From Apostichopus japonicus (Eukaryota > Echinodermata > Holothuroidea > Aspidochirotida > Stichopodidae), in NCBI RefSeq assembly GCF_037975245.1, contig NC_092568.1:20305001-20369000 (forward strand): 64,000 nt of DNA, given 5' to 3'. Shown here piece after piece: positions 19,691 through 48,794 of this stretch. Under the pieces are notes generated by a model, which saw nothing but the letters and a program-made list of their open reading frames with translations, did no database searches and was not told where the DNA came from. The position numbers and the translations under genes were made by a program. Position 1 is the stretch's first letter. Each line of letters starts with the position of its first letter.

Positions 19691-19932
19691 TCCTTTGCAC
19701 CTCCACACCTCTCATTTGAAAAATTCTTCATCTGCCTGTAACCTGTCCATAAAGGATGTGTATTACCAATATTATCAGCAACTGCAGTGTATTTGGTATG
19801 AACACAAAACATGGATGCAGTAAATTAATCTTGTAAGTGTAACAATATATATATATAAGAATTGAATGTGTAGCAAGTGGTATGACAGATATATAGTAAA
19901 TCAATAAAGAATAACACACCAGAAAAATTCCA

Positions 19933-19975
19933 CTTCACGACCGGTTTCGTCATTTTGGGACTCATCAGGCGAAAG
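19933..19975 (-). ncRNA. Hammerhead ribozyme, type I, slightly degraded copy
   Basis: On the minus strand the order is stem I, CTGATGA, stem II GTCC-CAAAA-TGAC, GAA, ACCGGT, C, then the GTGAAG side of stem I. All catalytic core residues are intact. Stem II has one C-U mismatch next to the loop and stem I one extra wobble, so activity may be lowered. Upstream on the same strand is a remnant tRNA-like B box (ggtttgattcc). Confidence 0.8.
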
Positions 19976-20011
19976 TAGGAATCAAACCCTGGATCTTCGT
20001 GTAAAGAATAC

Positions 20012-20053
20012 CTTCGCCTGATGAGTCCCAAAAGGACGAAACCGGTCGTGAAG
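20012..20053 (+). ncRNA. Hammerhead ribozyme, type I, intact consensus
   Basis: The parts are CTTCGC (stem I), CTGATGA, GTCC-CAAAA-GGAC (stem II, 4 bp), GAA, ACCGGT (stem III, palindromic with no loop), cleavage-site C at 20047, and GTGAAG (stem I return, six pairs with one G-U). Every invariant core base of the hammerhead is present. With a 3-bp loop-less stem III, cleavage is expected mainly as a dimer, as in the minimal type I hammerheads known from animal retroelements. Confidence 0.9.
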
Positions 20054-20299
20054 TGGAATTTTTCTGGTGTGTTATTCTTTATTGATTTACTATATATCTG
20101 TCATACCACTTGCTACACATTCAATTCTTATTTACGGCTTGGCTTGCCTATAAAGAGTGGTTATTCTGTGTAACATTGTGTAAAAAATTGTCAGACTCAA
20201 AGCGCCAGGGGTGCATTCTGTACAATCATAATACTTGTGTAATACGCCCTTAATGACAGTTAGTCAAAGCCAATTTATACGCTTTAACACATCAGTAGA

Positions 20300-20441
20300 A
20301 TCACTGTGGTCGAGTGGTACAGGCTTAGGTTCGTGACACGAAGATCCAGGGTTCGATTCCTACCTTCGCCTGATGAGTCCCAAAAGGACGAAACCGGTCG
20401 TGAAGTGGAATTTTTCTGGTGTGTTATTCTTTATTGATTTA

Positions 20442-20445
<4 letters not shown>
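20300..20445 (+). mobile_element. tRNA-derived SINE carrying a hammerhead ribozyme
   Basis: The 5' part is tRNA-like: A box TGGTCGAGTGG at 20307-20317 and B box GGTTCGATTCC at 20350-20360. The hammerhead follows immediately at 20364-20405, and then a short tail (ggaatttttctggtgtgtta ... tttattgatttac) shared by all three copies. It is bounded by a (TA)n microsatellite on the right. The A/B boxes imply RNA polymerase III transcription. The unit is only about 140 bp. The layout (Pol III promoter plus hammerhead) resembles Schistosoma Sm-alpha elements; relatedness is inference. Confidence 0.8.
20364..20405 (+). ncRNA. Hammerhead ribozyme in the tRNA-SINE, intact consensus
   Basis: The core is identical to that at 20012-20053: stem I CTTCGC/GTGAAG, CTGATGA, stem II GTCC/GGAC with loop CAAAA, GAA, palindromic ACCGGT stem III and cleavage after C at 20399. 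Four bases separate its start from the B box, so ribozyme and tRNA-like promoter form one transcript unit. Confidence 0.92.

Positions 20446-20476
<31 letters not shown>
20446..20476. repeat. (TA)n microsatellite
   Basis: A dinucleotide run directly at the 3' end of the hammerhead SINE, consistent with a simple-repeat tail. Confidence 0.9.
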
Positions 20477-24189: not shown

Positions 24190-24433
24190 GATCTTCCCGC
24201 AAGCAGGAACTCGCGAAAGAAGCCATGGAGGCTTTTAGACTCGCAAGCTGACCGAAGCCAATCTCTCGGCACACATCCATTTAACGTCCATGTCGGGAAG
24301 TTGTTATTGAACAACACCCTTGCCAGACAACACACATTGCCGTCGGCTGGGAATCGAACCGGGGATCTAATGACTGGGAGACGCCGGCGTTAACCACTAG
24401 GCTATACACTCCGCCTAGGCTATACACTCCGCC
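24190..24433 (-). mobile_element. tRNA-derived SINE
   Basis: On the minus strand: A box TAGCCTAGTGG (24394-24404), B box GGTTCGATTCC (24350-24360), an unrelated body of about 150 bp and a catatacatacata simple-repeat tail near 24170-24190. The first 18-20 bp of the head are duplicated (aggctatacactccgcc twice). It lies in an intron in the sense orientation of the host gene. No clear target duplication was found. Confidence 0.75.
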
Positions 24434-24618
24434 TATTGAATACCCTAAACCACTCAGTTTTCCTAATGTTATGTCCTGAAGACCTGTTCATTTTTTTTTC
24501 TTCGGAAAATACACACAGAATAGTTTTAGATAGCCATTATAAGGCATTGGTACACCACGTAAACCCAGAAGGGCAACAGTTTCTTCTCTTGAAAGGTCGA
24601 TCTTTGTGTTGGTCTTAC

Positions 24619-36939: not shown

Positions 36940-38617
36940 TGACCTTAAAAGTATGTACGCCATTCCCTCAAAGCTGCAGGCTCTGTTAGTATAAACCACT
37001 GATGTATATGATTTTGTTTATTTGTTGTTTTGTGTTTGTTCTTGTGCATGTAAATAATGGAGTATATATTGCTCATGAACACGTAAGGGATGATGTTACA
37101 TTAAGTCTGCCATTCCCTCAAAGCTGCAGGCTCTATTAGTCAAAACAACTTATGTACAAAGAGCTTGTTTGCTGTTTTGTGGTTGCTTAGTTTTGGTTTT
37201 GGCATGTAAATAATTGAGCTTTTCCCCATGAAGAAGGAATAATCTTACATTAAGTCTGCCATTCCATCAAAGCTGAAGTCTCAATGGTCTAAACCACTTA
37301 TGTACATGGATTTTGTCTGTTTTTTTGCTGTTTTGTAGTTGATTAGTTTTTGTTATGGCATGTAAATAATTTAGCATTAATAAGCATTATCTCATGAAGG
37401 AGGAATAATCTTACATTAAGTCTGCCATTCCATCAAAGCTGAAGTCTCAATGGTCTAAACCACTTATGTACATGGATTTTGTCTGTTTTTTTGCTGTTTT
37501 GTAGTTGATTAGTTTTTGTTATGGCATGTAAATAATTTAGCATTAATAAGCATTATCTCATGAAGGAGGAATAATCTTACATTAAGTCTGCCATTGCATC
37601 AAAGCTGAAGTCTCAATGGTCTAAACCACTTATGTACATGGATTTTGTCTGTTTTTTTGCTGTTTTGTAGTTGATTAGTTTTTGTTATGGCATGTAAATA
37701 ATTTAGCATTAATAAGCATTAACTCATAAAGGAGGAATGATCTTACATTAAGTCTGCCATTGCATCAAAGCTGAAGTCTCAATGGTCTAAACCACTTATG
37801 TACAGTACATGGATTTTGTCTGTTTTTGGCTGTTTTCTTGTTGATTAGTTTTTGTTATGGCATGTAAATAATTTAGCATTATTAAGCATTATCTCATGAA
37901 GGAGGAATGATCTTACATTAAGTCTGCCATTGCACCAAAGCTGAAGTCTCAATGGTCTAAACCACTTATGTACAGTACATGGATTTTGTCTGTTTTTTGC
38001 TGTTTTCTTGTTGATTAGTTTTTGTTATGGCATGTAAATAATTTAGCATTAATAAGCATTATCTCATGAAGGAGGAATAATCTTACATTAAGTCTGCCAT
38101 TGCATCAAAGCTGAAGTCTCAATGGTCTAAACCACTTATGTACATGGATTTTGTCTGTTTTTTTGCTGTTTTGTAGTTGATTAGTTTTTGTTATGGCATG
38201 TAAATAATTTAGCATTAATAAGCATTATCTCATGAAGGAGGAATAATCTTACATTAAGTCTGCCATTGCATCAAAGCTGAAGTCTCAATGGTCTAAACCA
38301 CTTATGTACATGGATTTTGTCTGTTTTTTTGCTGTTTTGTAGTTGATTAGTTTTTGTTATGGCATGTAAATAATTTAGCATTAATAAGCATTATCTCATG
38401 AAGGAGGAATAATCTTACATTAAGTCTGCCATTGCATCAAAGCTGAAGTCTCAATGGTCTAAACCACTTATGTACATGGATTTTGTCTGTTTTTTTGCTG
38501 TTTTCTTGTTGATTAGTTTTTGTTATGGCATGTAAATAATTTAACATTAATAAGCATTATCTCATGAAGGAGGAATGATCTTACATTAAGTCTGCCATTG
38601 CATCAAAGCTGAAGTCT
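36940..38617. repeat. Satellite array, monomer 166-170 bp, about ten copies
   Basis: The anchor gtctgccattgcatcaaagc recurs at 37254, 37420, 37586, 37752, 37922, 38092, 38258, 38424 and 38590. The spacings are 166,166,166,170,170,166,166,166 bp; the 170-bp monomers carry a tacagtacatgg insertion. Two more diverged monomers precede them at about 36960 and 37108. Inner copies are almost identical and the left edge is more diverged, as expected of unequal exchange. Confidence 0.95.
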
Positions 38618-38629
38618 CTAAAAAAACAC

Positions 38630-48552: not shown

Positions 48553-48794
48553 ATAAACCTTTGGTTGGTTGGCGTCTATCTTGGCACAGAGTGCTCTATG
48601 TCCGGTGGACAGAGTGAAATATATTAGTTGAGACTAGTGGAACACTAGTAGTTGTTACTCAGAGTTTACGCGCTTGAGCGATCATCAGACAACTGGTAGC
48701 TTCATGTTGTACTCCTGGAATATATGACACAAGCAAGTATAGACTCGAGGATTATCTTCGGGGATTATCGAGGATTCTCGGCATACCGTCCCTT

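What the first reader, a model, noticed from the sequence alone, without database searches (positions are those of the whole stretch)
20300..20445. A 140-bp tRNA-derived SINE with a built-in, intact hammerhead ribozyme
A Pol III A box and B box are followed within four bases by a complete type I hammerhead: CTGATGA, a 4-bp stem II, GAA, the palindromic ACCGGT stem III and a 6-bp stem I. All invariant residues are present. The element would transcribe itself and cleave its RNA at C20399 to give a 5'-OH end starting GTGAAG. Ribozyme-bearing SINE-like and retrozyme elements are known in schistosomes and other animals. A fusion this compact, with a canonical tRNA head, may be a new family.
Basis: partly seen in the sequence, partly recalled or inferred. 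Interest (0 to 1): 0.88.

Follow-up and report, generated by a model that had tools for sequence, protein, structure and literature searches.

The report
Sea-cucumber ribozyme retroelement with Penelope-like ends
A repeat in what is almost certainly a sea-cucumber genome carries a self-cutting RNA motif and what looks like its own small promoter, and its ends carry the insertion signature of Penelope retrotransposons, suggesting which machinery copies such elements in animals.

Summary
The motifs are real: A box (20307-20317), B box (20350-20360) and an intact type I hammerhead (20364-20405), with a second hammerhead at 20012-20053. The 140-bp SINE reading is not right. The hammerheads lie 352 nt apart in a tandem unit that runs from cut site to cut site (20048-20399), with a head-to-head inverted copy at 19852-20008. 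This is the anatomy of an animal non-LTR retrozyme. The host is almost certainly the sea cucumber Apostichopus japonicus. The exact head-ribozyme 21-mer occurs 292 times, 0 in the reversed control.

New here: copies end at two sites, near +50 and +76-87 nt past the cut, mostly followed by (TA)n. Of 16 inverted pairs with both ends readable, 15 use one site each. That is the published "tail" signature of Penelope-like elements (PLEs). A GIY-YIG PLE of this genome ends near +50 and +81 and follows the rule in 10 of 10 pairs. So the retrozyme is probably moved by a PLE. Its promoter boxes are conserved, but the only T5 (Pol III stop) lies just behind the ribozyme, so a Pol III transcript should not be the retrotransposed RNA. 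Cleavage, circles, Pol III use and partner are inferred.

The parts
19838..19857 (.). TA-rich tract at the left end of the composite insertion
   Evidence: sequence
19852..20008 (-). head-to-head inverted partial copy (about unit 285-352 then 1-87), ending at RT start site 2
   Evidence: inverted repeats I1 and I2 (98% and 95% complementary); HSPs
19933..19974 (-). hammerhead of the inverted copy, one stem II mismatch (GGAC to TGAC)
   Evidence: no match on this strand at the Rfam gathering score
20009..20449 (+). forward copy: unit 314-352, one whole unit, unit 1-50
20012..20053 (+). type I hammerhead, first copy; predicted cut after C20047
   Evidence: RF00163 38.8 bits
20048..20399 (+). 352-nt unit from cut site to cut site (predicted circular RNA), 40% GC
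20059..20063 (+). T5 run, Pol III terminator-like, 12-16 nt after the first cut site
20090..20134 (+). internal RT start sites 1 and 2 (unit 43-50 and 76-87) and the tail between them
   Evidence: ends of copies cluster here
20307..20317 (+). A box TGGTCGAGTGG
   Evidence: box consensus recalled
20350..20360 (+). B box GGTTCGATTCC; its last five bases (20356-20360) can pair with 20407-20411 as outer stem I
   Evidence: pairing in the fold
20364..20405 (+). type I hammerhead, second copy; predicted cut after C20399
   Evidence: in sister copies the RF02275 (HH9) model fits at up to 40 bits, under its gathering score of 52
20411..20415 (+). T5 run directly after the outer stem I
20442..20449 (+). 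3' end of the insertion at RT start site 1
20445..20476 (.). (TA)16 at the right end

Best explanation
It is a non-autonomous retroelement of the animal (non-LTR) retrozyme kind. Tandem 352-nt units are transcribed; each hammerhead can cut after C17 and the unit RNA can be closed into a circle (inferred). A Penelope-like RT/GIY-YIG endonuclease then acts on a circular or uncut RNA and starts reverse transcription inside it at one of two sites, near +50 and +76-87 nt past the ribozyme cut. The new 3' junction mostly meets (TA)n, either the target or an added tail. When both target strands prime, one uses each site, which leaves head-to-head inverted copies with the tail on one side only. Copying goes round or along more than one unit and stops at varied points, giving fixed 3' ends, scattered 5' ends and tandem units. 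The A and B boxes probably recruit Pol III, but the T5 just behind the ribozyme should stop it there. The boxes then either make a short self-cutting RNA, or Pol III must read through, or Pol II makes the template. Shown here: motifs, family, unit, end sites and pairing rule. Inferred: cutting, circularisation, Pol III use, and action of a PLE in trans.
For: Two Rfam-grade hammerheads 352 nt apart; 292 exact junctions against 0 in the control. A probe lacking head and ribozyme (window 20120-20300: 40 rows, one the window) gave 27 further fetched loci that cover 28 of the 39 other rows; 24 of 27 run through the ribozyme to unit 351-352. In 29 of 29 aligned units of this set the cut junction has no indel within about 4 nt, and A box, B box, ribozyme and T5 columns are better conserved than the rest (0.972 against 0.946, Mann-Whitney p 0.008, 0 of 141 circular shifts as large). 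3' ends: 112 of 145 non-redundant tracts from 117 loci end in two bands (unit 40-58: 72; unit 70-90: 40), and 84 of these 112 run into (TA)n, against 13 of 1599 window tiles and 290 of 4210 random stretches of the loci. Of 32 inverted pairs 16 have both ends in a band: 15 mixed, 1 site1/site1, 0 site2/site2; P 2.6e-5 from solo-copy frequencies, 2.5e-4 from frequencies within pairs. PLE family A of this genome (one frame with GIY-YIG over the Pfam cut-off and RVT_1 at 29.0 bits, just under its cut-off of 29.6) ends at +46-50 or +81-83 past GAAACGTC in 15 of 17 tails, and 10 of 10 head-to-head pairs found with exact end patterns are mixed. Two RT start sites, a 30-40 bp tail, AT-rich cuts on both strands and a hammerhead cut 26 nt behind the start codon are the published in vitro behaviour of an Anolis PLE (PMC11167929, parts 1-2 of 4 read); a 31-bp tail at one of the inverted pLTRs is in PMC3846280 (passages).
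Against: No sequence similarity between retrozyme tail and PLE A tail beyond shuffles (181 and 330 of 1000 score as high), so PLE A as the partner is not shown. Rfam finds no hammerhead at E<=5 in 13 PLE loci; the hammerhead-like remnant of PLE A is my reading. The bands and the 60-nt pair rule were set after seeing the data. 16 of 32 pairs have an end outside both bands, 12 of 74 solo tracts end elsewhere, and three arms of mixed pairs are only 26-31 nt long. With exact patterns over the whole genome only two retrozyme pairs appear, one mixed, one site1/site1 (47 nt apart, too short for a ribozyme). Only 24 of 133 5' flanks are (TA)-rich, so (TA)n may be a tail rather than the target. The ends cannot tell a circle from an uncut multimer. 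The folds of the ribozyme region and of the unit are no better than shuffles (z -0.95 and -0.80), unlike the highly self-paired circles reported for other retrozymes. No target-site duplication was evident in a simple search of single-tract loci.
Confidence: 0.74

Rival explanations
1. The 352-nt unit is the pseudo-LTR of an autonomous PLE family not seen here, and the copies are its solo or tandem pLTR remnants, not a separate non-autonomous element.
For: The ATG inside CUGAUGA lies 27 nt before the cut and opens a 50-codon frame over both start sites, close to the 26 nt of the Anolis PLE. The end rules fit a pLTR.
Against: Three PLE proteins find little in the 117 retrozyme loci (235 kb): 3 hits of 33-35 aa, two of them in L064 and L065, which look like one duplicated locus. 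In the tandems units follow each other directly. The open frame is not rare (P 0.037), and loop II length variants in several copies would shift it.
Confidence: 0.2
2. A tRNA-derived SINE of about 140 bp with a built-in hammerhead.
For: A and B boxes 43 nt apart (start to start) and conserved, T5 just after the ribozyme, fixed junction.
Against: 9 of 112 tracts start near the A box and 26 of 112 exceed 352 nt; the main 3' ends (unit 50 and 76-87) lie 34-71 nt beyond the T5; no tRNA model match.
Confidence: 0.05
3. LINE-driven target-primed copies with twin priming; the (TA)n is a tail or target preference unrelated to PLEs.
For: Fixed 3' end, 5' truncation, inversions and a microsatellite at the 3' side also occur with LINEs (recalled).
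Against: Two start sites used one each in inverted pairs (15 of 16), and the same unit part copied on both arms, are not the twin-priming pattern (recalled); a PLE of the same genome has the same rule at nearly the same distances.
Confidence: 0.05

Closest known systems
Metazoan non-LTR retrozymes (PMC7229834, parts 1-4 of 6 read; PMC7761336, passages)
   Same: Type I hammerhead, tandem unit of 170-400 nt, low GC, co-existence with PLEs.
   Different: PMC7761336 says retrozymes seem to harbour no promoters and animal ones show no motif that names the partner; here A/B boxes are conserved in the unit and the ends carry the PLE rule. (For a plant retrozyme, abstracts in the listing do report an LTR promoter.) The unit fold is no better than shuffled.
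Smalpha / Sjalpha SINE-like hammerhead elements of schistosomes (PMC2576457 and PMC8490949, passages; Ferbeyre 1998 not held; Laha 2000 seen only as a reference)
   Same: Hammerhead repeat with A and B boxes; 335 bp for the W element likened to Smalpha.
   Different: No schistosome sequence was compared here; no end rule or PLE link was seen in the passages read.
Penelope-like elements with hammerhead pLTRs (PMC11167929, PMC3846280)
   Same: Two RT start sites giving a 30-40 bp tail, AT-rich sites, head-to-head inverted copies, tandem units, ribozyme at a similar distance before the start sites.
   Different: No RT/GIY-YIG ORF; added tRNA-like head; a hammerhead that passes the Rfam type I cut-off, where 13 PLE loci of this genome gave none.
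Plant LTR retrozymes (PMC4918200 listing only; described in PMC7229834 and PMC7761336)
   Same: Non-autonomous element with hammerheads and circular RNA.
   Different: Type III hammerhead, LTRs, PBS/PPT, Gypsy machinery.

Membership tests
Metazoan non-LTR retrozyme | Type I hammerhead | tested here: met
   RF00163 over gathering score, two in the window; 50 of 59 genome matches over cut-off
Metazoan non-LTR retrozyme | Short tandem unit, 150-450 bp, low GC | tested here: met
   352-nt period, 40% GC; tandems in other loci, e.g. L017-L019, L059, L086
Metazoan non-LTR retrozyme | Highly self-paired unit RNA | tested here: inconclusive
   z -0.80, 24 of 100 shuffles fold as well
Metazoan non-LTR retrozyme | Unit-length circular RNA in tissue | not testable with these tools
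   no RNA data
Element mobilised by a PLE | Two internal RT start sites 30-40 nt apart | tested here: met
   ends at unit 40-58 and 70-90 in 112 of 145 tracts; distance between main ends 26-37 nt
Element mobilised by a PLE | Tail on one arm only of head-to-head inverted copies | tested here: met
   15 of 16 classifiable pairs; 16 of 32 pairs not classifiable
Element mobilised by a PLE | AT-rich insertion point | tested here: inconclusive
   84 of 112 3' flanks are (TA)n but 24 of 133 5' flanks; target or tail not resolved
Element mobilised by a PLE | Shared tail sequence with a PLE of the same genome | tested here: not met
   tested for PLE A only
Autonomous Penelope-like element | RT plus GIY-YIG ORF | tested here: not met
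   no room in the 352-nt unit; 3 short hits in 117 loci
tRNA-derived SINE | A and B boxes | tested here: met
   exact A in 18 of 26 and exact B in 21 of 26 copies of the ribozyme-blind set
tRNA-derived SINE | 5' end just before the A box | tested here: not met
   9 of 112 tracts
tRNA-derived SINE | tRNA-like cloverleaf | tested here: not met
   no RF00005 match at E<=10, no ARAGORN hit
Schistosome Smalpha | Sequence relation | not tested
   no schistosome sequence in reach

The most novel reading that the evidence does not exclude
A promoter-bearing animal retrozyme whose genomic ends betray its partner: 352 nt that hold a Pol III-type internal promoter overlapping the ribozyme's outer stem, a type I hammerhead, a Pol III stop, and the two PLE reverse-transcription start sites. 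As far as my paper searches show, it would be the first retrozyme tied to Penelope-like machinery by insertion structure rather than by co-occurrence.
Probability: 0.5. Interest if true: 0.76.

Novelty: new variant of a known kind. Interest (0 to 1): 0.62.

Why it matters
Which enzyme moves animal retrozymes has been open: the papers seen name PLEs as candidates because both carry hammerheads and co-exist. An end signature that is described as unique to PLEs, found in a retrozyme family with hundreds of copies, turns that guess into a test that can be run with one purified protein and one RNA. The conserved Pol III boxes, with a stop directly behind the ribozyme, also raise the question of who transcribes these elements.

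Tried and rejected
Rejected: 140-bp SINE (ends do not fit). Rejected: run-off of reverse transcription at the ribozyme cut; several tracts seemed to start at unit 1, but of the 12 tracts listed all but one (L077, unclear) go on into the preceding unit end, an artefact of the query edge. Rejected: sequence homology of retrozyme and PLE A tails. Tried without result: target-site duplications; tRNA model on the head; coding role of the frame from the ATG in CUGAUGA (open 50 codons, P 0.037, shifted by loop variants). PLE loci L101 and L103 also run into (TA)n, while L104 and L108 show none in the stretch printed; their distances were not compared. Rfam at loose thresholds on 11 retrozyme loci gave, beside the hammerheads, matches below their cut-offs, mostly to AT repeats; on 13 PLE loci it gave one tRNA over its cut-off, sub-threshold matches, and no hammerhead. 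Paper searches for a tRNA SINE with a hammerhead, retrozymes with Penelope, and related terms. No listing showed a retrozyme with PLE-type ends, but only the papers named in this report were opened, and Ferbeyre 1998, Cervera 2014 and Lunse 2017 are not held (Laha 2000 was not asked for).

Full report
What is in the window. Rfam type I scores 38.8 bits against a gathering score of 34, E 2.8e-6, for this and for a second copy at 20012-20053. The predicted fold of 20343-20418 has stems I and II, with an outer stem I in which the last bases of the B box (20356-20360) pair with 20407-20411; it does not draw the short stem III and is no more stable than shuffles (z -0.95). In sister copies the HH9 model, which has this internal loop, fits at up to 40 bits, below its own cut-off of 52. 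So promoter box and ribozyme appear to overlap rather than merely adjoin. Directly behind, at unit 12-16, lies the only run of four or more T on this strand of the unit.

The unit and the host. The two hammerheads are 352 nt apart. BLAST of the cut-to-cut unit (20048-20399) on the loci shows tandem units, partial units and inverted copies. In the window an inverted part (19852-20008) meets the forward copy (20009-20449) head to head. The genome has 671,581,487 bases in 35 contigs. The published Apostichopus japonicus assembly has 671.60 Mb, 34 scaffolds and 23 chromosomes of 18.21-46.02 Mb (PMC10344927, passages). Contig C35 (16,099 bases) holds a COX1 that reads as expected with the echinoderm code (the expected residues are recalled). 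I take the host as A. japonicus; this is a match of numbers, not a label.

Copy number. There are 59 hammerhead matches at E<=0.001, 50 over cut-off, with only 74 of 66,307 first-look candidates scored; the window's own two copies are not in that list, so it is a lower bound. The exact head-ribozyme 21-mer occurs 292 times. To avoid choosing by ribozyme, the middle of the unit (window 20120-20300) was used as probe: 40 rows, one being the window. 27 further loci (L091-L099, L120-L137), covering 28 of the 39 other rows, were used; the other 11 rows were not. 24 of 27 run on through head and ribozyme to unit 351-352 (L128, L134 and L136 do not). In 26 aligned copies of this set: exact A box 18, exact B box 21, strict ribozyme 15, relaxed ribozyme 20, T5 or T6 behind it 21. 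In the set chosen by ribozyme a run of T4 or more was found in 27 of 45, in the set chosen by likeness to the window in 29 of 31. Columns of boxes, ribozyme and T5 are better conserved than the others in the blind set: 0.972 against 0.946, p 0.008, and none of 141 circular shifts does as well.

How copies end. Tracts were read from 117 loci, which were chosen by ribozyme, by likeness to the window copy or by the middle probe. Of 145 non-redundant tracts, 112 end in two bands, unit 40-58 (72) and 70-90 (40); 84 of the 112 are followed by (TA)n. Window tiles meet that bar in 13 of 1599 cases, and random stretches of the same loci in 290 of 4210. Only 24 of 133 5' flanks do, so (TA)n may be a tail rather than the target. 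5' ends are scattered. 101 of 112 tracts visibly cross the cut site, and three more do so by a few bases, so the template was uncut or closed again. Exact patterns over the whole genome give 48 site-1 ends (1 in the reversed control) and 26 site-2 ends (0).

The pair rule. 32 non-redundant head-to-head pairs were seen; in 16 both ends fall in a band. 15 of 16 use one site on each arm; the exception (L031) is diverged (parts 74-79% identical) and has no (TA)n. Three arms of mixed pairs are pieces of only 26-31 nt between the two sites. With solo frequencies of 43 to 19 the chance is 2.6e-5; with frequencies taken within the pairs it is 2.5e-4. The bands were set after looking at the data, and the other 16 pairs cannot be used.

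The Penelope link. GIY-YIG matches in the genome (37) include family A. In L109 one frame holds GIY-YIG (26.9 bits, cut-off 22.6) and RVT_1 (29.0 bits, cut-off 29.6, E 1.1e-6). Of 17 family A tails, picked by their GGNTTTATACCNGAAACG stretch, (TA)n starts +46-50 nt past GAAACGTC in 7, at +60 in 1 (an interrupted run), at +81-83 in 8, and is absent in 1. For the retrozyme the same count gives +43 for site 1, since its unit itself reads TATATAT at 44-50. Exact family A end patterns occur 25 and 27 times. All 10 head-to-head pairs of these within 8 kb are mixed; two on C16 look like one duplicated locus. This is the PLE tail described for Anolis and bdelloid elements. In the Anolis element the cut is 26 nt behind the start codon and the most common RT start lies 111-118 nt into the ORF, i.e. 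85-92 nt behind the cut (my subtraction). In the retrozyme an ATG inside CUGAUGA is 27 nt before the cut and site 2 lies 76-87 nt behind it. The tails of retrozyme and PLE A are not alike in sequence, and Rfam sees no hammerhead in 13 PLE loci, so the likeness is one of geometry and of insertion behaviour.

Mechanism and open points. The simplest account is a retrozyme moved by a PLE. What the boxes do is open. A Pol III transcript from the head would be about 120 nt, hold the whole ribozyme and stop at T5, and so would lack both start sites. Either Pol III reads through, or Pol II supplies the template and the Pol III RNA has another role, or the boxes only mark descent from a SINE-like head. 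Schistosome hammerhead repeats also have A and B boxes (PMC2576457, passages), so boxes with a hammerhead are not new in themselves. A review states that retrozymes seem to lack promoters and that animal ones carry no motif that names their partner (PMC7761336, passages); this family speaks to both points.

Noticed in passing
window 48557-48700, minus strand: A second repeat beside (TA)n with a decayed hammerhead-like core (CTGATGA ... TAAAC, G12 lost). Copies in L103 and L110 (L110: CTGACGA ... GTGAAACCCCGAGTTACAAC) look by eye like a minimal type I hammerhead of another family; Rfam did not report them at E<=5.
   Followed up: partly
L110:766-838, minus strand: tRNA-like stretch scoring 48.6 bits with RF00005 (cut-off 29); similar stretches near other loci suggest a separate tRNA-derived SINE of this genome.
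   Followed up: no
window 24330-24440, minus strand: Another A-box/B-box pair with tRNA-like sequence, overlapping an 18-bp tandem.
   Followed up: no
L102, L106, L107, L109-L118: Family A PLE tails picked by GGNTTTATACCNGAAACG keep what looks like the 3' half of a hammerhead, preceded by TTGTTAAA or similar instead of CUGAUGA, yet keep the end rule.
   Followed up: partly
L101, L103: Two further PLE loci, of other families, also end in (TA)n; long (TA)n tracts in this genome may often mark PLE-type insertions.
   Followed up: no
window 37227-38618: 166-bp tandem repeat, 8.3 copies, 97% matches.
   Followed up: no
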